Origin: Methanosarcina sp. MTP4
GTDB lineage: Archaea; Halobacteriota; Methanosarcinia; Methanosarcinales; Methanosarcinaceae
NCBI RefSeq assembly: GCF_000970045.1
Contig: NZ_CP009505.1
Span: forward strand, 2,294,001-2,358,000
Direction of reading: 5' to 3'
Length of the DNA stretch: 64,000 nucleotides
Position numbers and translations under genes: made by a program. The notes below the pieces were generated by a model. It ran no database searches and had not been told where the DNA came from. It saw only the letters and a list, made by a program, of their open reading frames with translations. Below, one piece after another: positions 1 to 60,119 of this stretch (the first letter of the stretch is position 1; each line of letters opens with the position of its first letter).

Positions 1-2106
1 TTAACAACTTTCCTGGAAGGCGCTTCTTACTCCTACAATTCCGTGCTGGCTTTTTCGATATTTGACCTGGCCGAATACGGTCCGAATAACCCTGTGCACA
101 TACTGCCCCATTTTTTCCTGACAATCCTCGTATATCTTATATTCTCAGGGTTCCTTTATGAGCAGTTAAAGTTTATGGCAAACAAACAGGCGGGAGACTA
201 TTATTATGGAGCAGGCAAATATGCCGAAGCAAGTGAACGCTACGGACTTGTGGAAAATCAGTTAAGCGGGAAGCTATATACGAAAATTCATCCTTTTCCC
301 CCACCATTTTTTTTAAGGTATTACCTGGCCTACGGGGACAGTAAGTTCAGGGCAGGGAAGCCCGAAAGCCAGAGAATATCCGAAAACCGGAGAATACTCG
401 AAGCCTCCGCACTTCTGGATAAGGCCTTAAGCTATGCACAGGAGTTTCCCAATTCATACCTGTGGAAAATATTTTACACAAAGGGCCTTCTCGAAGCGGA
501 GACGCAAAACCTCCGGAGAAGCTATGAAAATTACAAAAAGGCGATAGATGCGATCGAAAACCTTCGGGGAAGCATAAAAATCCCCGAAAGGAGAGGAGAC
601 TTTTTCGAAAACAAGATCGAAGTTTACAAAAAAATGGTTTCCACCTGCCTGGAACTGGAAAAATACGAAGAGGCTTTCGAGTATGCGGAAAAAGCCAAAG
701 GAAGGGTCTTTCTCGACATGCTGGATTCTGCCAAACTCAACCTGAAAGCCAGTCCCGAACTGAAAGAAAAAGAAGCCGAGTACGTCAGAAAAATAAAGGA
801 GCTCCAGCTAAAAGGCGGGACAAGGACCAGAATGGGCGCCCTGGATTCCGAACTGGAAGGAGTCTGCAAGGAATACGATGAATTCCTTCTAAAAATAAAG
901 GAAGAAGACCCGGAGTATTATGCCATAAAAACAAGCGGAGTAACAAACATTGAAACAGTACAGCGCTGCCTGGAGGAAAACGAAGTTGTACTGGAATTCT
1001 TCATTGCGGAAAAAGCAATCCTGTTCATAATCCAGAAGGAAAACTTTAAGGTAAAGGTCCTCCCGACAGCTGTGGACACCCTCCATGAAAAAATAGTGGA
1101 TTTCCGGAAAAGGATCGAAGCCGAAAGGATGGAACTCAGAAAACATGAGGCAGAGAAAGAGGAAGAGAGCAAAACCGATTCAACGGGATCAGGGAGCGAA
1201 ACAGGGTCAAAAGAAGGCCAGGAAAAGAAAAAGCTAAGGCGCCTGAAATTTGTAGCCCGGGACCTTTACCGGGATCTGGTGAAACCCTGGGAGGATGAAT
1301 TACAATCCGGACCCTGTGATGACTTAGCCTGCGTGGAATCTGTCTGCGATGAATCAGTCTACGATGAATTAGCCAGCAATGAATTAGCCTGTAGTGAATT
1401 AGCCAGCAGAGAATTGATCATTATTCCTCACGGCATTTTGCACTATCTTCCTTTCAATGCCCTGCACGATGGGAAGAAATGGTTCATCGAAAAGTACGAA
1501 ATAAGGTTTTTGCAAAATGCTTCGATCCTTGAACTGCTGGCAAAAAAGAAGGTTAACAGCCAGAAAGCTCTTGTTGTCGGGAACCCCACTTCAAACCTGG
1601 AGTACGCCGAAAGCGAGGCTTTGAGCATTGCCGAAAAATTGAATACAAAAGCCCTTATTCGGGACGAAGCTACAAAAACTTCGGTCCTGGAAGAGTTAGG
1701 GAAAAAGGGTATAATCCATCTTGCATGCCATGCAAAGTTTATCGAAAAAGCTTCCAGGCTATCCCACCTGGTCTTTGCCGACGGCAATCTCTTTGTGACG
1801 GAGATCTACAACCTCGAACTTGAAACGGACCTTGTTGCCCTGTCGGCCTGCGAATCCGGCCTTGGAAGCCTTGATAACGGAGATGAAGTCGAAAGTATGA
1901 CCCGCGCCTTCATGCGTGCCGGGGCTCAGACTGTTATTTCATCCCTCTGGAGCGCTTATGATAAAAGTACAGAGAGCCTGTTTTTAATATTTTATGAAAA
2001 AGAAGGGAGCAAAGTACGGAGGTTAAGGGAATCACAGCTTGATTTGATGGAAACTTACGAACATCCCTATTACTGGGCTCTATTCGAATTGTTCGGAGAA
2101 AAATGA
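1..2106 (+). CDS. TPR and CHAT-domain (caspase-like peptidase) protein, 5' end outside window
   Basis: The frame is open from the first base, so the true start lies upstream; the first start-like codon in the window is GTG at 43. Counting from it (687 residues), a hydrophobic stretch near residues 20-37 is followed by TPR-like helical pairs (about 45-230), a charged helical region, a Ser/Gly/Glu linker, and a C-terminal CHAT domain (about 450-687). The caspase-type dyad is visible as His563 in HLACHA and Cys603 in SACESG. CHAT proteins are known as proteases in prokaryotic signalling and defence, often paired with separate sensors or substrates. A Cys/Glu/Leu-rich stretch before the catalytic domain is encoded by in-frame short repeats (1316-1420). 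It converges on the next gene with a 19 bp gap. Family is firm; substrate is unknown. Confidence 0.85.
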   Translation, partial: LTTFLEGASYSYNSVLAFSIFDLAEYGPNNPVHILPHFFLTILVYLIFSGFLYEQLKFMANKQAGDYYYGAGKYAEASERYGLVENQLSGKLYTKIHPFPPPFFLRYYLAYGDSKFRAGKPESQRISENRRILEASALLDKALSYAQEFPNSYLWKIFYTKGLLEAETQNLRRSYENYKKAIDAIENLRGSIKIPERRGDFFENKIEVYKKMVSTCLELEKYEEAFEYAEKAKGRVFLDMLDSAKLNLKASPELKEKEAEYVRKIKELQLKGGTRTRMGALDSELEGVCKEYDEFLLKIKEEDPEYYAIKTSGVTNIETVQRCLEENEVVLEFFIAEKAILFIIQKENFKVKVLPTAVDTLHEKIVDFRKRIEAERMELRKHEAEKEEESKTDSTGSGSETGSKEGQEKKKLRRLKFVARDLYRDLVKPWEDELQSGPCDDLACVESVCDESVYDELASNELACSELASRELIIIPHGILHYLPFNALHDGKKWFIEKYEIRFLQNASILELLAKKKVNSQKALVVGNPTSNLEYAESEALSIAEKLNTKALIRDEATKTSVLEELGKKGIIHLACHAKFIEKASRLSHLVFADGNLFVTEIYNLELETDLVALSACESGLGSLDNGDEVESMTRAFMRAGAQTVISSLWSAYDKSTESLFLIFYEKEGSKVRRLRESQLDLMETYEHPYYWALFELFGEK

Positions 2107-2125
2107 AACGGTTTTTGTTTAGCCC

Positions 2126-2917
2126 TTAGTTCCTTAGCCGGACATTTTCGCCATCTATCGATAATTTCTCCTCGTTTTCCAGGTCCGATAAAGCGTCCAT
2201 AAATTCCCCGTAAGCGATATCCTGAAGATCCGGTGCTTCGTTCAACCTATCTCTCAGCTCTTTGAGGGACAGGCTTCCCTCTTTGGCAAGCAAACCAAGT
2301 ATCGATTTTGTGAGCAGTTCCGAAAGCCCGTCTCCGGTCATGTCTTTCTCGTCCTGGTATTCCTCCTGACCCTCCAAATCAGTGTATTTTGAACCTCTTA
2401 CCGCTGCCACAGGCGGGTTATTGGTTATCATCGAACCGGAAACAAAACTTGAGCCGGGCTTCTGGATCTCCGGGAGCTTAGGAGATTCAGGAAGTTTGGG
2501 AGATTCAGGAAACTCATAGAGTTCAGGGGAGCAATCGGAATTCCGGGAATCGGGTTCGGAAAAAAAAGCGTTTAAAAAATCAGTGTAAAAGTGTTCCAGA
2601 GAGTGATTATTCAACTGTTTCCGGATTTCCTCAAGTACTTCCGAAAGGTCAGGGTCCTCTTCCCGATAACTATATGCCTCTGCCAGAAGGGAATTTTTAA
2701 TCTGCTTTACTCCGGGTTCATCTCTTTCTTCTTCAGCTCTTTTCAGTTCGCTTTCCAGAATTTCGAAGCGTGAGATGTCCTGCACTTTAAAGGTGTCAAC
2801 CAGATCTCCCAGGAATTCATAGAATAGATCCAGCTGCCCGTTTTGTTTCGCATGCTGCTTCCACCTGTAAACCACATCAAACGGGATCCTCCCCATAAAG
2901 AGCTCATCATAATCCAT
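2126..2917 (-). CDS. Hypothetical acidic protein with C-terminal winged-helix-like domain
   Basis: A 263-residue protein I do not recognise. Residues 1-125 are predicted helical and charged. A Pro/Ser/Glu linker near 130-150 carries a tandem PESPKL repeat, and the last 65 residues look like a small winged helix (ILGLLAKEGSLSLKELRDRL followed by a beta-hairpin-like end). It lies 18 bp downstream of the 500-residue gene on the same strand, so the two are probably one transcript. Its C-terminal end almost meets the CHAT gene coming from the other side. The winged helix could bind DNA or act as a protein contact module. There are no catalytic motifs. Whether it works with the CHAT protein or with the AAA cluster cannot be told from sequence alone. 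Confidence 0.7.
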   Translation of the reverse strand: MDYDELFMGRIPFDVVYRWKQHAKQNGQLDLFYEFLGDLVDTFKVQDISRFEILESELKRAEEERDEPGVKQIKNSLLAEAYSYREEDPDLSEVLEEIRKQLNNHSLEHFYTDFLNAFFSEPDSRNSDCSPELYEFPESPKLPESPKLPEIQKPGSSFVSGSMITNNPPVAAVRGSKYTDLEGQEEYQDEKDMTGDGLSELLTKSILGLLAKEGSLSLKELRDRLNEAPDLQDIAYGEFMDALSDLENEEKLSIDGENVRLRN

Positions 2918-2935
2918 ATTACCACTTTCTTTCCA

Positions 2936-4438
2936 TCAATTCAGGTTCTTAAATACTTCATATTTTGCCTCTACGACACAGCGCCTTTGTTTTCCCGTTT
3001 CCTCCTTAGGCCGTATTTCGAGCGGTGCCAGGAACTTTCCGGGCCTGTACATTACCTTTTCAAGCAGTTGAATACGCTCACCTCTGCTTTCCATACTGCA
3101 CCCTCCTTCCCGGTCACAGATCAGGTTAAGGTCCAGAACTGCCCCGTACCCGTACTTTTTCTGAATTAGTTCCCTGACCTCAATGTCCCCAATCTCCAGG
3201 TCTTTGATCAGGCCAAAACAGTTGAAATACACTTCCAATTCCCCTTTATTTTGCTCCTTTATGTTACGCTCCCCTTTATCCTTCCCTTTTTTATCTTTCC
3301 CCCTTCTATCCGTATATCTTCCTTCCTGAACCCATCCATCCTGATACTCTCCATTCTGGCCCCCTTTATCCTGCAACCCATTCTTCCAGCCTCTTTCATA
3401 AGAAGCGATTCCTTCTCCACATTCGACCTGAATTAATTTCTCTATTAGTTTTCTCCTTTCTTCCAGGTCCGTAAGTTTGACCGTTAGCAAAAAACCGAGT
3501 TCCTTACTTATGCTCCCGTACCAGGGGCAGGTTCTCCTGGATTCGATATCCCTGAGCAAACTGACCAGGCAAACGCCCATGGGAGTGAGTTCCAGGAACT
3601 CCTCCCCATCTTCATAAACAAGAGCAAGAACTCCACTTTGAAACCCTTTTCTTAGCGTTTCGTAAAACTTGCCGGGGTCTTCCTCATATCCCGTACCTGC
3701 ACAAACAGCTCTCTGCCTAGTTTTTTCTTGAAAGAAGCTGTTCATTATTACCGAGGCTAGCAAGGGCTTTGTGTAAGGGTTAATGCCCTGAAGAGCATCC
3801 CTGATGTTTCCGATGCTTTCGGGACTCATGCTGTTCAAATTAACTCTCTTCGGGTTTTGGGCTCTTTTTTCACGGAAATCCCCGGACATGATGAAGTGAA
3901 GGGAATAATCAGCTTTTTGCTCGATTGTTCTACTTATGCTTCCGAAACCGTCAGGAAAATTAAAATGTCCCAGAGCCTGTTCCAGAGCAGACCCGGATTT
4001 TTTTCTGTATGCTCTGCTGCATTCAACAAACTCTTTTTTATTCCCCCTGTTATCATAAAGAGCCGTACAAAATTCTTTTAACTCGATTTCCTGATTTAAT
4101 TCGGAAAATTTGTACAATTTTTTTATAAGTTTTTTCCCTAAAAAGGATATCTCTACAGCTTTGAAAAAACGATGGACTCTGCTATCATCCTTCAAATTGG
4201 AGGAAACCGGATAGTAAATGGGAACGGCAAGGTTCAATCCATACAGGTTATCAATCACGGCATTAAGGTCCCCGAATGTTTCCTCCCTGTGGCCCCTTTC
4301 AAAGCGGCTTATAATATCTCTATTTCGGAAGAGCCCCTCTTCATAGGACACATCATAAAGTATTTTTAATACCTCGATGTGGTTGCTTTTTGCCAGGGAA
4401 ACCCAAAGAGAGTTACCGAAATCGCTTTGAAAATACAT
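2936..4438 (-). CDS. Hypothetical protein with charged low-complexity insert
   Basis: About 500 residues, family not recognised. The ATG at 4438 is chosen; a GTG 18 bases upstream (4456) is an alternative and neither has a strong ribosome site. The N-terminal ~110 residues are mixed helix/strand and could be a winged-helix-like region. The middle is soluble alpha/beta. Near residues 370-410 there is a very polar insert rich in Gly, Lys, Asp and Gln (for example KDKKGKDKGERN), typical of an unstructured linker, before a compact C-terminal domain. A 270-base AT-rich spacer separates it from the AAA ATPase gene upstream, so it may have its own promoter. With the 263-residue gene it forms a two-gene unit. 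Confidence 0.7.
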   Translation of the reverse strand: MYFQSDFGNSLWVSLAKSNHIEVLKILYDVSYEEGLFRNRDIISRFERGHREETFGDLNAVIDNLYGLNLAVPIYYPVSSNLKDDSRVHRFFKAVEISFLGKKLIKKLYKFSELNQEIELKEFCTALYDNRGNKKEFVECSRAYRKKSGSALEQALGHFNFPDGFGSISRTIEQKADYSLHFIMSGDFREKRAQNPKRVNLNSMSPESIGNIRDALQGINPYTKPLLASVIMNSFFQEKTRQRAVCAGTGYEEDPGKFYETLRKGFQSGVLALVYEDGEEFLELTPMGVCLVSLLRDIESRRTCPWYGSISKELGFLLTVKLTDLEERRKLIEKLIQVECGEGIASYERGWKNGLQDKGGQNGEYQDGWVQEGRYTDRRGKDKKGKDKGERNIKEQNKGELEVYFNCFGLIKDLEIGDIEVRELIQKKYGYGAVLDLNLICDREGGCSMESRGERIQLLEKVMYRPGKFLAPLEIRPKEETGKQRRCVVEAKYEVFKNLN

Positions 4439-4726
4439 AGTTAACCCTGAGTACACTGGATATTATTTATTACATTGATATATTACCCATTGATATTCAA
4501 AAATTAATATCTGTTGGTCACCTCCTGAGCAGCCGATTGTCTCTCTCAAAATGCATAAACAGAAAACGCCGAATAATAAAAATATTTAATAAATGTAAAT
4601 TATTCAATAAATACAAACTGTTTTCGGGTGGAGCTGAATTAAAACTTATTGTAAAAGGTCCCGGAACCAGAGCCTATTGCAACCCGTTCTATAAAGACAA
4701 GTTCTGGCTCCCACCGGGTTTACTTC

Positions 4727-5986
4727 TTACTTTTGTCCTATCGTTTCCGAAAGCCTCCTGCTCTCTTCTGAAAACGCCTGCAGGAGATCATCCAGGCAGA
4801 TCTGAGGCCTGTCATTTTTACCTATCAACCGGATCCTGCTGCTGATCGCCGAATCTCCTTTAAGGAACCTCTCAACCGCAAGATCGCTTGCCCTTACCAC
4901 GGCTCTTTCAAGGTCCCTGCCCGTAAAAGCGTAAAGCTTCCCGTTTCTGGAACAAAATTCCGGCTCCGTTGTCCGGACGGCTTTTTCGATATCACTGTCA
5001 TCAACGGCACAGTGCTGAGGTGCGGTCTTCAGAAGGGATTTTACGATCCCGCATCTTACTGAAAAGTCAGGGAGAGGGATGTTAACCATTTTAACTCTGG
5101 TCTTGAAAGCAGTGTCGATGTCTTCTTCCCTGTTGGTGGCAAAGAGCATGATGAGGCGGTCTGTCCCGAACTGCAGGGACTGCACGCCGTCCATGAACTG
5201 GAGAATTTCCGCCATAAGGGCGACAGAGGCTTCATGGGGGTTCTTTGCCCGGGAAGGTACCAGGTGGTCTACTTCATCAATGAAAAGAAGAACTTTTTTC
5301 TCGCTCTCTTTACAGAGTTCCCCTGCCTGCTTGAAGATGCTCTGCATACGGGCCGCAGACTCCCCGTACCCGCTTGAGCGGATCTGGGCCGCATCAACTG
5401 CAATGAAATCAGCCTCCATTCTTTGTGCAAGGGCTTTTGCAACCGTGGTTTTTCCCGTCCCCGAGGGACCCGCAAGGAGGATGTACTGCTTGTGGTTTTT
5501 ATAGCAGGGCATCTCGGGAAACCTGAGCCTGCGGGTATAGAATTTCTCGATATCATCCACGACCTTTCCGGCAGTCCCGTGGATATTGATTTTTTCTCCA
5601 AGAGGCACCCTGAAACTCTCGATCGGAACCATACGGGCAGATTCTTCACTGGAGCTTACCTTTTCCGCTCCGTATCCCGATGAAAGCTGGCTCAAAAACC
5701 TGTATATCTCGTCATCGTTTTTCTCGTTTGCAAGGAGTTTCTGGATTGAAACAAGCTTATTCTGGACAGACCTGCTTTTTGATTCCGCAAGCAGCCTGTC
5801 AACCTGGATCCTGAAGAACCGGTCCCTGCACAACAAAAAATTCGGTATGTCACCTTTTTCAACGTAACGGTTCAGCTCCTCCCACGTTTCGTTCACCAGG
5901 TTTTTTTCCTGAGGAGCAGGCGAAAGCACCTTGCGGTTCAAGCCGGAGTTCATAAGCCTCCTGTTCATTAAAGCTAGCTCTGACAT
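4727..5986 (-). CDS. Classical AAA+ ATPase (Vps4/spastin/katanin-like architecture)
   Basis: A 419-residue single-ring AAA+ ATPase. ATG at 5986 is preceded by GAGAGGTG at good spacing; the GTG at 5998 lies in that ribosome site. The N-terminal ~130 residues are helical and charged, with no domain I can name. The AAA core follows: Walker A GPSGTGKT at 173-180, a GYGES segment resembling pore loop 1 near 206, Walker B LLFIDEVD at 233-240, sensor-1 FATNR at 282-286, and a likely arginine finger in FKTRV (Arg297). A lid and a C-terminal helix (LDDLLQAFSEESRR) resemble the end of meiotic-clade AAA proteins. Such enzymes pull apart or thread protein assemblies. It follows two helical proteins and a membrane protein, which are its likely partners or substrates. 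Confidence 0.88.
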   Translation of the reverse strand: MSELALMNRRLMNSGLNRKVLSPAPQEKNLVNETWEELNRYVEKGDIPNFLLCRDRFFRIQVDRLLAESKSRSVQNKLVSIQKLLANEKNDDEIYRFLSQLSSGYGAEKVSSSEESARMVPIESFRVPLGEKINIHGTAGKVVDDIEKFYTRRLRFPEMPCYKNHKQYILLAGPSGTGKTTVAKALAQRMEADFIAVDAAQIRSSGYGESAARMQSIFKQAGELCKESEKKVLLFIDEVDHLVPSRAKNPHEASVALMAEILQFMDGVQSLQFGTDRLIMLFATNREEDIDTAFKTRVKMVNIPLPDFSVRCGIVKSLLKTAPQHCAVDDSDIEKAVRTTEPEFCSRNGKLYAFTGRDLERAVVRASDLAVERFLKGDSAISSRIRLIGKNDRPQICLDDLLQAFSEESRRLSETIGQK

Positions 5987-6049
5987 TCTGGAAAACACCT
6001 CTCTGGATTTATGAAAAAATTAAATTTCGTTTTTTTCGGCAGGAATAGT

Positions 6050-6910
6050 TCAGTACATCTCCTTCAGTCCGCTTGAATCCGTTTCCGCATGAAGGTGGGA
6101 ATTCAACCTTACTTTGAGCTGGTCTATCTGTTTTGAGCGGATGTCCTCAAACTCAGGTTCGTCAACCCGTCTCAAGACTTCCTCATAGCCCAGGAGGTCG
6201 GTTGCCTGAAGCTCGGACCTGTTGAGGAGTTTTTCCGCGGTCTCCGAAAGAGCCCTGTTGATCTCTTTTTCATCATATGAGCTTCCGTCTTCCAGAAGGT
6301 CCATGTCTATACTTTCGAGTGCCTCAAGGAATTCGGCAAGGTAGTCCTCATTTAATTCTTCCCCATCTTTTATTATGTCGTGCCTGTTTTTCAGCTCATC
6401 GATGATCATTTCAATCAACTGGACGTTGGCATCGGCATTACAGTAGACCCCATAACACCTGTTCAACCGCTTCTCCGAAAACGAGGCTTTTTTCAGGGAT
6501 TCTTCCGCTTTCCTGGCAACTTTTCTCCGCAGTCTCCGGGTCTTTGGCTCACTGCAACTTTCAGTCGTATCGTCAAGGGCTTTAAGGCATTTTTCGGCTT
6601 CTGCGATCAGGGAATCATAGTCCGCCTCGGCTGACTCTGCCAGGCGCCCGTACTTATGTTTCCGCTTTTCATAGTGCCGTTTCTTATCTCCCATGAGACG
6701 AGTTTTCTCCTCAATGCTCTGCAACTTTTCGAATCTGACCTGCTCTCCCGAAAGCTTAAGCCGACTGTTCCCGTAGCCGTCATCAGGCCAGTTTTTCCCC
6801 GGGTTTTTCCCGGGATAGCTTTCCTCTCTACCCTTGCTTTTGTCCTGTTGAAGCCTTACGCCCAGGGCTTCAACATATTTTCCCATCTTTACAGGTATCG
6901 ATAAAGACAC
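6050..6910 (-). CDS. Charged alpha-helical (coiled-coil) protein linked to AAA+ ATPase
   Basis: 286 residues, family not recognised. GTG at 6910 is the start, with GGAGGG about nine bases before it. The sequence is nearly all predicted helix and highly charged. A basic, Lys/Arg-rich first half (roughly 60-150, with KKRHYEKRKHKYGRL and TRRLRRKVARKAEESLKK) is followed by an acidic second half (roughly 185-260). The basic-then-acidic helical layout superficially recalls ESCRT-III and PspA-like proteins acted on by Vps4-type ATPases, but I see no diagnostic motif, so this is only a hypothesis. It sits 51 bp (to the chosen ATG, 63 bp) upstream of the AAA gene and 12 bp downstream of the 216-residue gene, which indicates co-transcription. 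Confidence 0.72.
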   Translation of the reverse strand: MSLSIPVKMGKYVEALGVRLQQDKSKGREESYPGKNPGKNWPDDGYGNSRLKLSGEQVRFEKLQSIEEKTRLMGDKKRHYEKRKHKYGRLAESAEADYDSLIAEAEKCLKALDDTTESCSEPKTRRLRRKVARKAEESLKKASFSEKRLNRCYGVYCNADANVQLIEMIIDELKNRHDIIKDGEELNEDYLAEFLEALESIDMDLLEDGSSYDEKEINRALSETAEKLLNRSELQATDLLGYEEVLRRVDEPEFEDIRSKQIDQLKVRLNSHLHAETDSSGLKEMY

Positions 6911-6922
6911 TTCAGGCCCTCC

Positions 6923-7573
6923 TTAAATTTTAATCCCGTTAATTTCCTTTGAATTCGCTTCAAAGTCCCTGATCATGTTTCCTATCCTGTCCTTAACCGT
7001 TCTCAGGTCATTTTCAGTGATCTCTTCGGCAGCCAGGCTTTTTTCTTTAATCTGCGTTTCCCGGATTACTTTTTCAACATCCATCAGCTTCTCCGCATCC
7101 AGTAAAAGGGAATTTAACAGCTGCGTCGAACAGAGTGAAATTTCTTCAAAGCGGCATCTGTCTTTATGTGTAATTGACCCGAAGCGGCTTTTGTTCAACC
7201 TTACGAGCCTGTCCATTTCCTCAATCACGAGCGGCATTTCCGTGAAAACGAAATGGTAATTGCCAATGAAGTGCTTGCGTTCCAAAACCGGCACTTTGAA
7301 ACGGAGCATCAAAGCTTTTCCATAATCCCGGGAAGAACTGAAATAATGTTCAAGGTCAAGTTCCCGATCCCTGCCCTGGCTTCTCATTTCCCCGTTTTTG
7401 AGGACTTTTTGCTTGAAAGCTTCCTCCTTCCTTTCCAGTTCGCATATCTGCGAGTAGGCTTCCTGAAGCACTGCTTTTGAAAAGAAAAACCTCATTTTTA
7501 CCGAATCGGAGATTTTTTCGGGGGTATTTATTTTAGAACCTATCCAGGCCCGGGATTCCCTATTGACATTCAT
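6923..7573 (-). CDS. Alpha-helical protein, second coiled-coil component of AAA cluster
   Basis: 216 residues, family not recognised. ATG at 7573 has GGAGGATC directly upstream. Residues about 35-75 and 110-200 are predicted long amphipathic helices with many Glu, Lys and Arg residues. There is no membrane segment, signal peptide or catalytic motif. It lies 14 bp downstream of the small membrane protein gene and 12 bp upstream of the other helical protein gene, so all four genes down to the AAA ATPase read as one operon. By position it is probably a structural or adaptor part of a complex handled by the ATPase. Confidence 0.7.
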   Translation of the reverse strand: MNVNRESRAWIGSKINTPEKISDSVKMRFFFSKAVLQEAYSQICELERKEEAFKQKVLKNGEMRSQGRDRELDLEHYFSSSRDYGKALMLRFKVPVLERKHFIGNYHFVFTEMPLVIEEMDRLVRLNKSRFGSITHKDRCRFEEISLCSTQLLNSLLLDAEKLMDVEKVIRETQIKEKSLAAEEITENDLRTVKDRIGNMIRDFEANSKEINGIKI

Positions 7574-7587
7574 CTTGATCCTCCCGG

Positions 7588-7998
7588 TTACCAGTCAACT
7601 TCTTTTCCGAGCTTGCTCCGCATCATATAGTATGCCAGGGCCCCGACAATGAAAGAGGCGATCGGGTGGTTTTGCATATAGGTAATCAGTTCAAAAAGGA
7701 AATCCCGAACCCAGTAAATTATGTTATAGCACGCAAGCCTGATACCAAACTCAAAGTCAAGGACCCTGTTAAATATCAAAACGGAATCCGGATCTATTGA
7801 GCCCAGGGCCGACCTGCAGCCAGGTATAAAAGGTTGAAACCTGTGCCTGATTTCAACATACCCAGCTGCAAGAGCCAGCAGTACAGCTGTGTATATTCCC
7901 AGGATTTTTAGTCGATTCCCGGGGGAGTAACAAAACCCTTCTTTATCTTTCCCGGACATAACAATCTTTAGATCTCCATGAATTTCACTGAGTGACAT
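7588..7998 (-). CDS. Small membrane protein, first gene of AAA/helical-protein operon
   Basis: 136 residues; ATG at 7998 is preceded by GAGGAG. It has a clear hydrophobic segment near residues 32-48 (GIYTAVLLALAAGYVEI) and another near 108-126 (PIASFIVGALAYYMM). Between them is a region with weaker hydrophobicity (about 75-105). The N-terminal ~28 residues are polar and the C-terminus ends in a short basic tail. No known family is recognised. As first gene of the unit 7998-4727 it could anchor the helical proteins and the AAA+ ATPase at the membrane; this is inferred from position only. Confidence 0.65.
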   Translation of the reverse strand: MSLSEIHGDLKIVMSGKDKEGFCYSPGNRLKILGIYTAVLLALAAGYVEIRHRFQPFIPGCRSALGSIDPDSVLIFNRVLDFEFGIRLACYNIIYWVRDFLFELITYMQNHPIASFIVGALAYYMMRSKLGKEVDW

Positions 7999-8331
7999 AG
8001 CAGTCTCCTCCTTACAAACAAGACCTCCACTTAATTTTAAGGGTCAGTTTGAACATATTATGACTGAATTTCGATATTTATCAAGCACCGTTTCAATGCT
8101 CCTGTTCAATGCTCCTGATGACCTTCCTGCGAACCTGAGGAGAGCATAAAATCCAGCCCTGCCTTCCTTTTACTTAGAAAGTCTTCAATTATTTTTATTG
8201 TCTTCAATTATTTTTACTTCCCTATCATCAAGATGCAGCAAATTTTGCCCATTGAATCTCGGGTAACAATTTCACAAATTTGAAACCTCCTGATCCACGC
8301 TTTAAGATACAAGTCTAATTTTGAAAGAGTC

Positions 8332-8447
8332 GTTATACATAGTGTGTCTCCATCCCTTTCGGGAATTCCTCAAAGTTCATTTTTACCATTGAGAAAACTT
8401 TCATACATAGTGTGTCCCCAGACTTTTCGGAACCTCTTCAAGCTGCA
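8332..8447. repeat. Two copies of a ~48 bp motif
   Basis: The motif ATACATAGTGTGTC-CC occurs at 8336-8352 and 8403-8419. In both copies it is followed by a related pyrimidine-rich stretch containing TTTCGG and then CCTC.TCAA or TCCTCAAA. The copies start 67 bp apart. No coding function is evident. They may be remnants of an insertion or a duplicated regulatory segment. Confidence 0.5.
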
Positions 8448-8508
8448 CGGATAGGATTTCAATCGCACGAAAAAAATTGATTACTGAAAAAAAGGCAGAA
8501 AAGGCCAA

Positions 8509-8555
8509 ACCTTTCCCCGGGGAAAGGTGGGGCAGTTTATTTAAATTCAGGGTAA
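8509..8555. repeat. 47 bp repeat, copy 1, containing an 18 bp perfect palindrome
   Basis: This 47 bp segment is matched at 42 of 47 positions by 12240-12286, in the same orientation. Here it contains the perfect palindrome CCTTTCCCCGGGGAAAGG (8510-8527), followed by TGGGGCAGTTTAT and TTCAGGG. The palindrome is imperfect in the other copy. The two copies bracket the secreted protein and the beta-lactamase-fold lipoprotein genes. Confidence 0.7.
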
Positions 8556-8757
8556 AAAACGTAGTTGCTTTTTTTCACCAAGCGTGCTGAGAATTGTAGC
8601 AATCAAAAAACGTTTGCGGATATCTAAACCGAAAGCTTTGTTTATTTATTCCTGCCAATACACATTCCTTCATATTTTTTATGGCCAGTGTGATTGCCTC
8701 AAAGGCAATTTGGCATCCGTGATCAAGGTCAGGTTTAAGTCTTTGATCGCAATTCAC
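8547..8757 (-). pseudogene. Frameshifted protein remnant, family unknown
   Basis: On the minus strand a frame from 8757 encodes AFEAITLAIKNMKECVLAGI and then loses sense. A second frame takes over near 8638 with KAFGLDIRKRFLIATILSTL and ends at a TGA at 8547-8549, inside the 47 bp repeat. The joined peptide has a protein-like amphipathic composition, which suggests the 3' end of a decayed gene. I cannot name the family. Confidence 0.3.
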
Positions 8758-9542
8758 TGGTTAGTTTTCGCATGGCTTCGAAGAGCCGAAATAAGTACAA
8801 CCTTCCTATCCAGGGGAATGACAGGGTTAATAGGCAAATATGGATACTGTGAAAATTAATTTAATTTATTTATGCCTGTTATTCACGGAATATCATGTTC
8901 GTTTTCTTAAATGCCACTCTCTTAACAAAATTGATTTAAAACCTATATGAATAACTATTTATTAGATCTATATAGGTATAAGTGTATAACACTAATAGAT
9001 AGTTTATTAAAATTAATATGATCGTCTAATCATATACAAATAAAATTACAATTTATGATTAAAAATCATCTATTGGTGCTGAAAATTAGTTGCGCGCATC
9101 TAACGTACAAATCCATATTTTTAGTTTATTAAAATAAGGATTTGACGCTATCTTAACACTTTTAGTTCATTTTATATGCTAAAAATACACATTTATAATT
9201 AAAAATCTTATGCAGAAGCTTGATTATAAGTTTAATTTTAATTTTAAAGTTTGAAAACTATTTTTCAGGAAAAATACGGCTTGATAAAGTTTTAAATTCC
9301 ATTCAAAATCAGCGATTTTACCCTGCTTGTAAGAATGTTTATATAGTTAATCGACTAAGAAAAAATTGGAAAACTTTGAGAGTTGGGGACTGGCATATCC
9401 TTCAAATGGACATGCATATAATATTTTGACTGTTGCCATTATAGATTGAAATGTAGCAGTATTGTTTGTTCTCAAGCCTCAAAATAAAACCAGAGATCCC
9501 ATATAAATATAAAACTTGAACAAAAATTGAAAGGTGTGATGA

Positions 9543-55261: not shown

Positions 55262-56065
55262 TCAGGCTTCCGCTTCAGCCCGGGGCATCCTGACCTGCAT
55301 CTTCATGGAAGTACCGGGACCTTCACGTCCCATGGGGCCTCCCCTCTGCTTGATTCCGGCTTCTTCCCGGAAAGACTCCATGATTTCCCGTACAGACCCT
55401 CCTATTTCCTGGAGAGCTTCACGGTCTTCAGCACTGTCTACCTGCTCCTGAAGGGTAGTGAGGTCGGCAATGGTTGATGTCAGCAATTCATCGGTAACAT
55501 CTTCGTTTTCGATTTCCCCGAGGTTTTCCTGCATTTTTGTGAATTTTTCGATATCCCTTGCGATGGAGTCGCTCACCCCATCTTTTGCATGGGAGAGAGC
55601 TATTGCTTTGAGATCATCGAGGCTCGTTGCGTCTTCGATTTCGGAGTAAAGGGCTTCAAGTTCGGCGAGTTTCCCGGCATTGGCTTCAGCTCTTTCTTCA
55701 GCCTTTGCTGCGGCTTTCTCTTCATCCACACCTTCGGGGAGATCTTCCAGCTCCGGTATATCCGACATGTTGCTCATTCTCTCGATCTGCCGGTCAAGGC
55801 GTTCGAGCATTGCCGTCTGAATTTCAGAGAAATAGTCTTCATCTGCATAGTCCAGGGGTACCATTCCCATTCCGGACATCCCGGCAGGTCCCATTCCGGG
55901 TCCCATCTGGCCCATTCTTTCTTTCATCATGTTTCCGGGACCTGCCCGGGTCATTTCATCTGCCGAAATTTCATCTTCTGCGGCAAAGGCGCCTGATGGA
56001 ATAATACTTAAGACCATCAACACCACCGCAAAGCGGGCGATTGATTTTACTGAATTTGTTTTCAT
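55262..56065 (-). CDS. Secreted helical protein with Met/Gly-rich segment
   Basis: 267 residues; ATG 56065 with GGAGATA upstream. A signal peptide (1-28) ends GAFA. A Met/Gly/Pro-rich segment follows (about 38-70, MMKERMGQMGPGMGPAGMSG), then a long acidic helical region (about 75-235) with coiled-coil character. A second Met/Arg/Gly-rich stretch closes the protein. Met-rich exported segments can bind copper or silver in other proteins, but no established motif such as MxxM-H is present, so this is a guess. It is on the same strand as the 54027 gene, which it resembles in layout. Confidence 0.72.
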   Translation of the reverse strand: MKTNSVKSIARFAVVLMVLSIIPSGAFAAEDEISADEMTRAGPGNMMKERMGQMGPGMGPAGMSGMGMVPLDYADEDYFSEIQTAMLERLDRQIERMSNMSDIPELEDLPEGVDEEKAAAKAEERAEANAGKLAELEALYSEIEDATSLDDLKAIALSHAKDGVSDSIARDIEKFTKMQENLGEIENEDVTDELLTSTIADLTTLQEQVDSAEDREALQEIGGSVREIMESFREEAGIKQRGGPMGREGPGTSMKMQVRMPRAEAEA

Positions 56066-56691
56066 GATATATCTCCGTCAATTATCCTGTTATGTCATAC
56101 TCGTTGGATCGGGGCTCACTGACTTCTCGCCAGTTGACGATTTCTTGCCAGTTGACAATCCTCACATTGTCAGGCTTAAATATAAGTTTACTTTCAGAGA
56201 TAATGCTAAAAAAGGGGTTAAATTTACAAAATAAGCTTTAATAAATGATATGTTACTTAATTAAGCTTAATTAATACTTATAATTATATTTTAACCCCTA
56301 AAAAACCTTAATTTCCCAGCAAAGGATGAGCGGTCAGAAATACCCCCTGGTCCGAGAATATTTTCGTTGACCCCGAAAAACGCTTTTTTACCCAATCTTT
56401 ATAATAGCCTCCGCCAGCTTGCCTGGCGGCGCCTCCTAAAAAGAAATAAAAAAGAGATGTGAAAAAGGGCATTCGTAGACTGTAGCTTTTTCTTTTATAA
56501 TTGAACTCTTTTTCCTTTATTTGGGATTTTGAGGGTTGACTTTAAGGAATCAGGCAAAAAATCCGGAGTGTTTTTTATGCTGATTGGAAAAAATGGGCTT
56601 TTGAAGGGACTTTGCATTATCTGAAGCAGAACGCCAGGTCAGATAAACCGTTTACTCTGAATTGCGATATTTTTAAAACCACCTAATGTAA
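56066..56691. other. Spacer with a GC-rich hairpin
   Basis: About 600 bases without a gene. CCGCCAG (56411-56417), CTTGC, CTGGCGG (56423-56429) form a 7 bp hairpin. The left part should hold the promoter of the secreted protein gene reading left. Confidence 0.45.
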
Positions 56692-56757
56692 ATTCATCCT
56701 GTCTAAAAGGATAGTTTTATATACAATATGTATGGTATGTTTGACATGACGATGAAT
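56692..56757 (+). promoter_or_regulatory. Repeated promoter, copy A
   Basis: The segment contains CTGTCTAAAAGGATAG, then TTTTATATACAATATGTATG, then GACATGACGATGAAT and the ATG at 56758. It matches copies B (56980-57045) and C (59655-59726) almost base for base. TTTTATATA is a good archaeal TATA box. Confidence 0.8.
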
Positions 56758-56979
56758 ATGAGATTAAGTGGAGAAGTAAAAGAAGACGAAAGAGATTATC
56801 GAATTTCAGAAAAAGCCAGTCTTAGAACCTTCCAGATAATATTTATAGTCCAGGGATTTCTGTATGCGACTCTTGCCATTTTGGGCATTCAATTGCCAGC
56901 ACAGCCGGTAGTAGGAGCACTTTTTGCTATTACAGGAATCTCTTATGCGGGAATCTTTCAGTGGTACAAAAGAATGTAA
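56758..56979 (+). CDS. Internally deleted DUF2178-type membrane protein, copy A
   Basis: 73 residues if started at ATG 56758, the position equal to the start of the intact copy at 59727. In this copy the first ~55 codons of the intact protein (its first two membrane helices) are missing, and the start codon joins directly to RLSGEVKEDERDYRI. The rest is nearly identical to the intact copy, ending with two membrane helices. A start at 56728 would run through the promoter repeat and is rejected. It may be non-functional, or a two-helix variant. Confidence 0.6.
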   Translation: MRLSGEVKEDERDYRISEKASLRTFQIIFIVQGFLYATLAILGIQLPAQPVVGALFAITGISYAGIFQWYKRM

Positions 56980-57045
56980 ACATATCTTGTCTAAAAGAAT
57001 ATTTTTATATACAATATGTAATGTATGTTATACATGGTGATAAAT
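56980..57045 (+). promoter_or_regulatory. Repeated promoter, copy B
   Basis: Same layout as copies A and C: TTGTCTAAAAGAATAT, TTTTATATACAATATGTAAT, and GGTGATAAAT before ATG 57046. Here it drives an unrelated small membrane protein, so promoter and coding parts have been recombined. Confidence 0.8.
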
Positions 57046-57210
57046 ATGGACATGAGCTACAATGTTAGGAAAATAATTAGAATTATTGTTGCTGTTATTT
57101 GGGTAATTGGTGCAGCTATGTATGGGATGAAAGGGGATTATTTATTTTCAGGATTATTTGCATTAATAGGTATAGTGTTCTTAGTAAAAGGTTTAAAAAG
57201 TGAAAGGTAA
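57046..57210 (+). CDS. Small two-helix membrane protein
   Basis: 54 residues from ATG 57046, aligned with the start position of the other copies of this promoter. Two hydrophobic helices (IIRIIVAVIWVIGAAMYG near 10-27 and YLFSGLFALIGIVFLVKG near 32-49) separated by a short loop, with a basic C-terminus. It does not resemble the DUF2178 tail at sequence level. Function unknown; shared promoter with the DUF2178 genes suggests co-regulation. Confidence 0.65.
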   Translation: MDMSYNVRKIIRIIVAVIWVIGAAMYGMKGDYLFSGLFALIGIVFLVKGLKSER

Positions 57211-57226
57211 CCACTCAGGTTTTTGA

Positions 57227-57490
57227 ATATTTCCAATTGATGTAGTAAAATATGCGGGGCACCATCTTGATTTTCTTCATGTGAATGGGTGGTTGGAAAG
57301 AGCTGAAATTAAACGCAAGATGGAACCTCGAAGTCTTTTAATATCCAAGCCTGCAAAAAAGACAAAACCGGGAAGACCACCTAAAAAGTTCATAGAATTC
57401 GTTGATGGTATCCGATCAATTCTGAAAAGAGCAGTTGAGTTCTCGGAGATAAATCCACCTTCACCAAAAGAAGAAAGCAAAGATTTATGA
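57227..57490 (+). pseudogene. Reading-frame remnant, family unknown
   Basis: An open frame without an ATG encodes FPIDVVKYAGHHLDFLHVNG and continues through a basic KPAKKTKPGRPPKKF stretch, resembling an AT-hook, to TGA at 57488-57490. The lack of a start and of upstream promoter suggests a fragment; a GTG at 57281 would give 69 residues. I cannot assign a family. Confidence 0.3.
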
Positions 57491-57588
57491 AAATCTTGGA
57501 AGAGAAATTTGAAATGACCGGCTATAAAAGAAGTAAATATATCTATATTTCTTAAATCTGAGTGGTTACAGTTAAAGGAAGTAGTAAA

Positions 57589-58275
57589 ATGCTAAAAGTT
57601 AATAAATTATCTGCATGGTACAAAGAAGATAATATTATATTAAAAGAGATTACATTTCATTTGAAAAATAATACTGTAGTTGGATTATTGGGATTAAATG
57701 GAGCAGGGAAAACAACTTTGATTAATACGATATCAGGTGTACACAAAAGTTACAGTGTAAATGATTTAAAATATTATGGTAATGAAATTAAATTTGATGG
57801 TATAGAGTGGAAGGAACAGCGCTATACGGTTTTTACGGAAGAACAGGCTTTTACTTATTGGTCGTTCAGGGAGTACTTGCCTTTTGTTGCGAAGGTGTAT
57901 AAAAAGCAAATTGACTATTTACGTGTAGAAAAATTAATTAAAGGATTTGGCTTTGATAAATATAAGGACTATCCTATTAAAGATTTGTCAACAGGAAATC
58001 GTAAAAAGATATTTTTGATTACGGGATTTGCTTTGGAGTTGCCACTACTTATTTTAGATGAACCACTGGATGGATTAGATTACTTAGCATCAGAATTTCT
58101 CTATAAGGAAATAGTTGGATATAAGAAATATGGAACAGTACTGATGAGTTCACATATTGCAGAAAGTATAGAAAAAACTTGTGACGAAGTTCTTGTATTA
58201 AAAGAGGGAAAAATAAGGACAGAGAATTTATCAGAAATACAAGATATTCGTGCAGCCGTGGAAGGATGGTTGTAA
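57589..58275 (+). CDS. ABC transporter ATP-binding protein
   Basis: 228 residues from ATG 57589, with AAAGGAAG upstream. Walker A GLNGAGKTTLI near 38, a degenerate signature DLSTGNRKKIFL near 132 (STGNR in place of LSGGQ), Walker B PLLILDEPLDGLD near 147, and the switch His in MSSHIAES near 185 are all present. The gene is AT-rich with many AAA, ATT and TTA codons, unlike the flanking chromosome. Its stop is immediately followed by the start of the permease gene, so the two form one transporter, probably an exporter. The substrate is unknown; no precursor peptide or lantibiotic genes are seen. Confidence 0.88.
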   Translation: MLKVNKLSAWYKEDNIILKEITFHLKNNTVVGLLGLNGAGKTTLINTISGVHKSYSVNDLKYYGNEIKFDGIEWKEQRYTVFTEEQAFTYWSFREYLPFVAKVYKKQIDYLRVEKLIKGFGFDKYKDYPIKDLSTGNRKKIFLITGFALELPLLILDEPLDGLDYLASEFLYKEIVGYKKYGTVLMSSHIAESIEKTCDEVLVLKEGKIRTENLSEIQDIRAAVEGWL

Positions 58276-59436
58276 ATGCTCAGTAAAATCTTTTTTAAAG
58301 ATCTTGTAACGAAAAAAAAGGTTTTTAAATATTTGTTGGGAATGGTTTTATTTACAGTATTTGTTAAGCTTTTTTTAGCGGATTTTATTAAGCCTATTTT
58401 TCAAGAAGCATTTCTTCCCTGGATAACGTTTATTACAATATTTACATCTACTGCTTATACAATTTATACGTATTCACTGTTTGAAAAGGTAAAGACATAT
58501 ATAATGTTACCAATCAAAAAAAATCGATTTCTATTAGCTTTTACAATTGGAATGATAGGAATATCCTTTTTAGAGAGAGGGTCTTTTCTTATCATAGGAG
58601 CATTAATTTGTAGTAGTAGACCGATTTATAGCATCACAATAATTATATTGGTAGCGACGTGGTCAATTCTAATTAATATATGGGTGTTGCTTACAGTAAA
58701 CAACCATAAAAAAATTAACTGGATTATAATTGCAACTAATTTTATCATGATTTTTCTTGCATTTAATCTTATTTCTTCAGAAGTATTTCAATTATTGATA
58801 TTAGCAAGTGGGATTATAATTTGTTTTATTGAAATTTTACTACAGGACAGCATATCGATAGCTATAACACATATAGGGAAAAGAGGACTGGCAAAATTTC
58901 ATTTTGCAGGTAATTACTTTTTGAAGGTGATTGCCTATGAAAAAATCTATATTGTAAACTCCGTTATGTTAATAGTAATGATCTGTCTCTTATCTTTTAT
59001 GAAAGGAGATAATGTGATTATTTGGAGCCTTATATGGACAATAGGAGCTACCAATACTCCAGTACTAACTATGATGTCTTCTGATTTATATGTACGAAGG
59101 CAAGCTCAAATGTTCCCTGAATCAAATGTGAGCTTGTGGAAGATGTACTGTATATTTCTTATGGAATATTTCTTATTTATAAATGGATTGATTTGTGTTT
59201 TTTCTATATTTATAATCGGGAAAAATCCATGGATAACTATTCCAATTGCCTTAGTGCTTAGTGTTATAGAAGTAATTGGTGCTTATATTTTAGAGAAAAA
59301 GAAACCAATTCTTTATTGGCAGACTAAGCAAGAGCTATGGAAAAATCCTCGAAAATATATTTTATCAATTATTGTATTTTTACTAATAAGTAGTATCTAT
59401 TCGGCTACCTCAATTTTTGAGTTATTTTGCGTATAA
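58276..59436 (+). CDS. ABC transporter permease, ABC-2-like
   Basis: 386 residues with about ten hydrophobic segments spread along the chain, the first near 20-38 and the last near 362-382. The start codon follows the ATPase stop with no gap. No signal sequence or conserved catalytic motif is present. The two-gene ATPase-permease pair resembles bacterial exporters of peptides or drugs in length and AT-rich composition. It was probably acquired by transfer, perhaps from Firmicutes; a database comparison would be needed to confirm this. Confidence 0.82.
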   Translation: MLSKIFFKDLVTKKKVFKYLLGMVLFTVFVKLFLADFIKPIFQEAFLPWITFITIFTSTAYTIYTYSLFEKVKTYIMLPIKKNRFLLAFTIGMIGISFLERGSFLIIGALICSSRPIYSITIIILVATWSILINIWVLLTVNNHKKINWIIIATNFIMIFLAFNLISSEVFQLLILASGIIICFIEILLQDSISIAITHIGKRGLAKFHFAGNYFLKVIAYEKIYIVNSVMLIVMICLLSFMKGDNVIIWSLIWTIGATNTPVLTMMSSDLYVRRQAQMFPESNVSLWKMYCIFLMEYFLFINGLICVFSIFIIGKNPWITIPIALVLSVIEVIGAYILEKKKPILYWQTKQELWKNPRKYILSIIVFLLISSIYSATSIFELFCV

Positions 59437-59573
59437 ACTCAACATTTACTTTTTTCATAATAATTGAGCCTATTCCAAAATACTCCAAAACTCTTTAACT
59501 CAGCTTTCAAAGAAACAGTAAACACCCTTCTACTTTTATCGAAAAAACCTAAAACAGGGAGTTCACGAGAAAA

Positions 59574-59654
59574 TTGCCAGCACAGCCGGTAGTAGGAGCA
59601 CTTTTTGCTATCACAGGAATCTCTTATGCGGGAATCTTTCAGTTGTACAAATGA
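59574..59654 (+). pseudogene. C-terminal fragment of DUF2178 gene, copy between the ABC genes and the intact copy
   Basis: Encodes LPAQPVVGALFAITGISYAG then IFQLYK and stop (TGA 59652-59654), the same last 27 codons as the intact copy with few changes. The earlier part is absent: the sequence upstream is unrelated. This is the left-over end of a third DUF2178 gene, directly joined to promoter copy C. Confidence 0.85.
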
Positions 59655-59726
59655 ATGTAAATTCATCCCGTCTAAATGAATAGTTTTATATACAATATGT
59701 AATACATATTTGACATAGTGATAAAT
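59655..59726 (+). promoter_or_regulatory. Repeated promoter, copy C, with perfect operator-like palindrome
   Basis: CCGTCTAAATGAATAG, then TTTTATATA (TATA box), then AATATGTA (59694-59701), A, TACATATT (59703-59710), a perfect 8-1-8 palindrome between the TATA box and ATG 59727. Copies A and B keep the left arm but have weaker right arms. A repressor bound here would block initiation; the small Cro/CI-type protein encoded at 60133 is the obvious candidate. Confidence 0.75.
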
Positions 59727-60119
59727 ATGAAAGCTCAAGAAATTGCTTCGTTTACAATTGGAATCTTTTTGGTTACAATTGGGATTTATATATGGGTCTA
59801 TGAACCCATCTGGGTTTCAAGCATACATGGTGCCACGGGGGGATTAATAGTTGCTGGCGTTGCACTTATTTTAATAGCACTGTGGAAATACAAAATCAGA
59901 ATAAGTGGAGAAGTAAAGGAAGACGAAAGAGATTATCGAATTGCAGAAAAAGCCAGTTTCAAAACCTTCCAGATAATATTTATAGTCCAGGGATTTCTGT
60001 ATGCGACTCTTGGAATTTTGGACATTCAATTGCCAGCACAGCCGGTAGTAGGAGCACTTTTTGCTATTACAGGAATCTCTTATGCGGGAATCTTTTGGTT
60101 GTACAGAAGAAATATGTAA
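59727..60119 (+). CDS. DUF2178 four-helix membrane protein (intact copy)
   Basis: 130 residues from ATG 59727; a GTG three codons earlier is rejected by comparison with the other two copies. Four membrane helices: two in the first half (SFTIGIFLVTIGIYIWVY and GGLIVAGVALILIALW) and two after the charged linker SGEVKEDERDYRIAEKA. DUF2178 proteins are often next to a small HTH gene, as here (14 bp downstream). Function is unknown; a membrane sensor or anchor for the regulator is one idea. Confidence 0.85.
   Translation: MKAQEIASFTIGIFLVTIGIYIWVYEPIWVSSIHGATGGLIVAGVALILIALWKYKIRISGEVKEDERDYRIAEKASFKTFQIIFIVQGFLYATLGILDIQLPAQPVVGALFAITGISYAGIFWLYRRNM

What the first reader, a model, noticed from the sequence alone, without database searches (positions are those of the whole stretch)
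2126..7998. Unexplained AAA+ ATPase cluster with two helical proteins and a membrane protein, beside a CHAT protease-like gene
Four tightly spaced genes (7998 to 4727; gaps of 14, 12 and about 60 bp) encode a small membrane protein, two charged helical proteins and a classical AAA+ ATPase with intact Walker A, Walker B, sensor-1 and arginine finger. Two further unknown proteins follow on the same strand, one with a winged-helix end, and the last meets a TPR-CHAT protease-like gene tail to tail. None of the five non-ATPase proteins matches a family I know. An ATPase that remodels helical filaments at the membrane, or a defence or stress module with a caspase-like effector, would both fit. The sequence shows only gene order and motifs; function is inference.
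Basis: partly seen in the sequence, partly recalled or inferred. Interest (0 to 1): 0.65.

Follow-up and report, generated by a model that had tools for sequence, protein, structure and literature searches.

The report
Strain-specific AAA ATPase and CHAT-protease island
An 11-kilobase gene island, present in one archaeon and missing from the same spot in its three nearest available relatives, combines a membrane-bound caspase-like protease gene with an unusual ATPase and five proteins that match almost nothing known; it is probably a defence or cell-death module, but that function is untested.

Summary
In detail: six same-strand genes (7998 to 2126), four tightly spaced, one a classical AAA+ ATPase, meet a CHAT protease gene tail to tail. 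The CHAT gene is larger than the window shows: 1,204 aa, starting 1.5 kb before the window, with about nine membrane-like segments, a CHAT domain (E 1.9e-52) and an intact His/Cys pair. New: all seven genes lie in one 11.2-kb segment (window about -2262 to 8901). Two congeners have only about 170-190 bp of unrelated sequence there; a third has about 10 kb of other genes. So it is an accessory island at a variable site. No relative of the five non-ATPase proteins, nor a full-length relative of the ATPase, was found in 238 genomes of the class or 393 of the phylum. The PspA/Snf7 (ESCRT-III) idea failed the sequence-profile tests. The ATPase is very divergent: best single-domain match fidgetin-like 1, tree position unresolved. 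F ends in a confident MCM4-like winged helix. Best reading: a strain-specific conflict or cell-death island in which the ATPase complex controls a membrane CHAT protease. That functional link is inference (confidence about 0.4); independent passengers are nearly as likely.

The parts
7588..7998 (-). Gene A: 136-aa small membrane protein (one clear TM segment, residues 30-48; others possible)
   Evidence: ORF and GGAGG site; hydropathy; no family match
6923..7573 (-). Gene B: 216-aa charged protein, predicted all-helical at low confidence
   Evidence: no family match; not PspA
6050..6910 (-). Gene C: 286-aa charged protein (39% charged residues), predicted all-helical at low confidence
   Evidence: no family match; not PspA
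4727..5998 (-). Gene D: 423-aa single-domain classical AAA+ ATPase with a unique N-terminal region of about 165 aa
   Evidence: Pfam AAA 1.7e-28; motifs; best single-domain match FIGNL1; tree place unresolved
2936..4456 (-). Gene E: 506-aa protein of unknown family, separated from D by 270 bp (possibly its own promoter)
   Evidence: no family match
2126..2917 (-). Gene F: 263-aa protein with a C-terminal MCM4-like winged-helix domain (about residues 200-260)
   Evidence: Pfam MCM4_WHD 1.6e-5 / 1.1e-6; AF2 pLDDT 84-90; Foldseek top matches MCM4 and cullin WHB, E 0.05 or more
1..2106 (+). Last 702 codons (stop included) of a 1,204-aa membrane protein with weak TPR and a C-terminal CHAT protease domain; the gene starts at window -1508 (L043:1493)
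   Evidence: Pfam CHAT 1.9e-52; nine TM-like segments, His1080 and Cys1120
1..8901 (.). Part inside the window of an 11.2-kb accessory island (window -2262 to 8901) missing at the syntenic site in G001, G002 and G003
8665..8910 (.). Degenerate dispersed repeat at the right edge of the island, also present in G001 and G003

Best explanation
This is a strain-specific conflict (defence or cell-death) island. Shown: seven genes in two convergent units form one block that is present here and absent at the same site in three congeners; one unit encodes a membrane-embedded CHAT (caspase-like) protease with its catalytic pair, the other an AAA+ ATPase, a small membrane protein, two charged proteins (probably helical) and two further proteins, one ending in a winged helix. 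Inferred: the ATPase forms a ring that, through its unique N-terminal region, handles B and C as partners or substrates and is held at the membrane by A; E and F are sensing or regulating parts that bind nucleic acid or protein; on a trigger the ATPase remodels the complex and frees the CHAT protease, which cleaves host proteins and stops or kills the affected cell.
For: Single 11.2-kb block with the seven genes and little else, absent in three congeners, two with an empty site; CHAT domain with intact His/Cys; convergent genes 19 bp apart; AAA with secondary similarity to defence AAA models TRIP13 and IetA (7e-17, 1e-15), though these scores are generic for AAA; ORFan, fast-diverging proteins, as is usual for conflict systems described in PMC7159879, which combine AAA+ switches, peptidases and membrane parts; intact reading frames with host-like codon usage.
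Against: The pairing of CHAT and A-F is seen only once; none of the 15 closest CHAT loci examined encodes a relative of A-F. No recognised defence genes beside it. The variable site takes unrelated cargo in G001. PADLOC has no match for the CHAT protein. No functional data.
Confidence: 0.4

Rival explanations
1. Two independent accessory units share one variable site: a stand-alone membrane TPR-CHAT protein and an unrelated AAA operon, without a functional link.
For: Convergent, not co-transcribed genes; the site takes different cargo in G001; CHAT relatives elsewhere occur without relatives of A-F in the stretches examined; E and F are set off from A-D by 270 bp.
Against: The block as a whole is present or absent in the four genomes; little else is in the block.
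Confidence: 0.3
2. A membrane-remodelling machine that works like ESCRT-III/Vps4 or PspA: the ATPase takes apart filaments of B and C at the membrane, with A as anchor.
For: Gene make-up (membrane protein, two charged helical-looking proteins, single-domain AAA, winged-helix protein) parallels the Asgard Snf7-Vps4-ESCRT-II neighbourhoods described in PMC11237479; best single-domain match of D is FIGNL1, of the clade that also holds Vps4, spastin and katanin; CdvC is the top NCBIfam model, far under its cut-off (88.5 of 650 bits).
Against: B and C match neither Snf7 nor PspA models, hhalign to PspA 0.0-0.1%; D has no MIT or Vps4_C match; tree unresolved; no confident fold.
Confidence: 0.15
3. 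Remnant of an integrated plasmid or virus whose replication or packaging proteins include the AAA ATPase and an MCM-type winged-helix protein.
For: Block of ORFan genes with sharp edges at a variable site; MCM-type winged helix in F; dispersed repeats near both edges.
Against: No integrase, primase, capsid or partition gene recognised; no relatives in viral contigs, phages or plasmids; host-like codon usage; no tRNA in the window.
Confidence: 0.1

Closest known systems
CHAT-domain (caspase-like) proteases, Pfam PF12770, e.g. TPR-CHAT Csx29 of craspase (PMC10028731, PMC11089037)
   Same: CHAT domain at E 1.9e-52 with the His/Cys pair, weak TPR region
   Different: Multi-pass membrane N-terminal half; no Cas7-11 or other CRISPR part beside it; instead an AAA operon
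Meiotic-clade AAA ATPases (fidgetin-like 1, spastin, katanin, Vps4/CdvC)
   Same: Single classical AAA domain; best single-domain match FIGNL1; no PG(R) step after sensor 1
   Different: No MIT and no Vps4_C match; very long branch; tree position unsupported
TRIP13/Pch2 of CBASS and IetA of IetAS
   Same: AAA similarity (PADLOC 7e-17 and 1e-15); extra residues before Walker B as in TRIP13
   Different: TRIP13 is the weakest of the references by single-domain score (32-44 bits); no HORMA, cyclase or IetS match in the neighbours
MoxR-vWA ternary and related NTP-dependent conflict systems (PMC7159879)
   Same: AAA+ switch, peptidase effector, membrane proximity, rapid divergence
   Different: No MoxR, vWA, VMAP or effector-associated domain detected
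PspA/Snf7 (ESCRT-III) systems with Vps4-type ATPases (PMC11237479)
   Same: Similar gene make-up on paper: charged helical proteins, AAA, membrane and winged-helix proteins
   Different: No sequence or profile match of B or C to PspA/Snf7

Membership tests
ESCRT/Cdv system | ESCRT-III (Snf7/CdvB) or PspA family protein | tested here: not met
   No Pfam match for B or C at E up to 10; PspA search of the genome finds one gene elsewhere; hhalign 0.0-0.1%. Fold likeness beyond sequence not resolved.
ESCRT/Cdv system | Vps4-type ATPase with MIT and Vps4_C domains | tested here: not met
   N- and C-terminal pieces of D give no MIT or Vps4_C match; CdvC model 88.5 of 650 bits.
Meiotic-clade AAA ATPase | Groups with Vps4/fidgetin in a tree | tested here: inconclusive
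   Long branch, unresolved; AU test does not reject (p 0.38) but does not support.
CHAT protease | CHAT domain with catalytic His and Cys | tested here: met
   Pfam 1.9e-52; His1080 and Cys1120 read from the sequence. Activity not tested.
CBASS with TRIP13 | TRIP13 ATPase with HORMA and cyclase neighbours | tested here: not met
   No HORMA or cyclase match in A-C, E, F; TRIP13 grouping neither supported nor rejected (p 0.39).
IetAS | IetA ATPase over its cut-off plus IetS subtilase | tested here: not met
   IteA/IetA model 48.6 of 510 bits in NCBIfam; no subtilase gene in the block.
MoxR-vWA ternary conflict systems | MoxR AAA plus vWA protein | tested here: not met
   No vWA or MoxR match as best family in any of the seven proteins.
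Anti-virus defence system | Protection against a virus or plasmid | not testable with these tools
   Needs an experiment.

The most novel reading that the evidence does not exclude
A new type of archaeal conflict system in which a fidgetin-like AAA ATPase that remodels helical partners at the membrane directly controls a multi-pass membrane CHAT protease, with winged-helix sensor or regulator proteins.
Probability: 0.15. Interest if true: 0.8.

Novelty: new variant of a known kind. Interest (0 to 1): 0.5.

Why it matters
If the link between the ATPase operon and the CHAT protease is real, it would add an ATPase-gated, caspase-like system to archaea and bear on how AAA remodelling machines and caspase-like proteases came to work together. 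At the least it marks a variable chromosomal site in this genus that takes up different accessory cargo, and five protein families without known relatives.

Tried and rejected
Relatives by single-sequence search: AAA in 112 family and 393 phylum genomes at E 1e-24, a peptide-pattern scan of the species genomes (only near-identical relatives would be caught), viral contigs for D, E, C, B, F, plasmids and phages: nothing beyond generic AAA. A joined query of all non-AAA parts in the class and phylum found only itself plus chance-level hits (best E 0.003). An apparent bacterial lead (Nostoc plasmid AAA in a gas-vesicle cluster) covers only 68% of D at 27% and has unrelated neighbours. The closest Methanosarcinales AAA relatives (about 475 aa, 42-44% over the domain only) sit in unrelated surroundings. 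phrog_3757 (3.5e-27) proved to be a general PAN/Cdc48-like profile that hits every genome. Structure prediction of joined B-C and E-F without alignments gave mean pLDDT 38 and 40; apart from F's winged helix nothing can be read from them, so the B-C model was not searched against structure libraries. Genes B to F happen to share one reading frame, so stop read-through was considered: their stops are TAA and TGA, none TAG, so a pyrrolysine fusion is not suggested. Limits: at most two first-look candidates per genome were scored, four, so a weak relative could be missed; only three congeners are held.

Full report
What is there. A, B and C have strong ribosome-binding sites and gaps of 14 and 12 bp; C to D is 51 bp, D to E 270 bp, E to F 18 bp. 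Codon usage supports all six as genes of this host. The last gene, F, ends 19 bp from the end of a plus-strand CHAT gene. The window cuts that gene: fetched from the genome it encodes 1,204 aa, with nine TM-like segments in the first 555 residues, a weak TPR match and a C-terminal CHAT domain (1.9e-52) that keeps His1080 and Cys1120.

An accessory island. A DNA search of the three available congeners and a local comparison show the flanks on both sides aligned at about 80-97% identity, but the block between window -2263 and 8902 is missing in G002 and G003, which have about 170-190 bp of unrelated AT-rich sequence there. G001 carries about 10 kb of other genes between the same neighbourhoods, including a metallophosphoesterase and a 2,018-aa protein with TSP3 and NHL repeats. 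G002 is the nearest of the three by left-flank identity (94-97%) and lacks the block, so a gain in this lineage is the simplest reading; loss cannot be excluded with four genomes. The left edge lies at the stop codon of a hydrolase gene, next to a dispersed repeat with more than ten further copies in the genome; the right edge carries another degenerate repeat. No integrase, no tRNA and no clean target duplication were seen.

No relatives. Outside the AAA domain and F's winged helix no family matches were found in Pfam, NCBIfam, PADLOC, PHROGs or PDB sequences. Whole-genome searches found no relative of A, B, C, E, F or of D's N-terminal region in 238 genomes of the class and only chance-level hits in 393 of the phylum (three of these hits join F's winged helix to frames of about 950-980 aa, perhaps MCM proteins, not followed up). 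There are no paralogues in the own genome at E 0.001. Gene-order conservation therefore could not be tested. The 15 stretches around the closest CHAT relatives encode no relative of A-F.

The ATPase. D is a classical AAA protein but very divergent (Pfam 100 bits). Two-domain Cdc48 proteins top the PDB list only because two domains are summed; by single domain the best match is fidgetin-like 1 (86-88 bits) against 65-70 for the VAT domains and Vps4 and 32-44 for TRIP13/Pch2. D shares with fidgetin and Vps4 the lack of the PG(R) step after sensor 1, and with TRIP13 extra residues before Walker B. In a 23-row tree D has a very long branch (3.66) and no supported place; neither grouping with Vps4 and fidgetin (p-AU 0.38) nor with TRIP13/Pch2 (0.39) is rejected.

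The ESCRT/PspA test. B and C match neither Snf7 nor PspA models in Pfam; the genome's own PspA gene is elsewhere; hhalign against eleven PspA relatives gives 0.0-0.1% for B and C. D has neither a MIT nor a Vps4_C match. Single-sequence AlphaFold models are mostly below pLDDT 50; they agree with B and C being helical, no more. Membership in the ESCRT system is not met at the level tested; a distant likeness of fold cannot be excluded.

How it may work. Shown: a membrane protease gene and an ATPase operon side by side on one accessory block. Inferred: the ATPase with B, C and A forms a membrane-linked machine, E and F sense or regulate, and the CHAT protease is the effector. The general pattern of AAA+ switches coupled to peptidases near the membrane is known from described conflict systems (PMC7159879), and CHAT proteases are known effectors (PMC10028731, PMC11089037), but this set of genes fits none of those systems by the features tested. 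The main weakness is that the pairing is seen once, in a site that also accepts unrelated cargo; independent passengers remain nearly as likely (0.3).

Verdict. A real, strain-specific block with five proteins of unknown family, a divergent ATPase and a membrane CHAT protease; no functional proof. Interest 0.5.

Noticed in passing
L041:15776-16052 (window -2225 to -1949); another copy begins at window 63981: Dispersed intergenic repeat of about 200-280 bp with a GC-rich stem-loop-like core, more than ten further copies in the genome and several in G003; no Rfam family at gathering score.
   Followed up: partly
L066:1625-11555 (G001): The same variable site in a congener holds about 10 kb of other genes: a metallophosphoesterase, a membrane protein, a short ORF resembling a transposase remnant (no Pfam match) and a 2,018-aa TSP3/NHL-repeat protein.
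   Followed up: partly
window 8335-8441: Two direct repeats of 39 nt (79% alike, 68 bp apart) upstream of gene A, possibly regulatory.
   Followed up: no
window 2126-7573: Genes B to F all lie in the same reading frame although separate stops end each of them; probably chance (about 1 in 81).
   Followed up: partly
window 56001-60000: Stretch of low G+C (0.31-0.34 against about 0.45-0.52 elsewhere) with G-rich skew.
   Followed up: no
L010-L015: A family of about 475-aa single-AAA proteins with a distinct N-terminal half occurs in several genera of the family and shares 42-44% identity with D over the AAA core only.
   Followed up: partly
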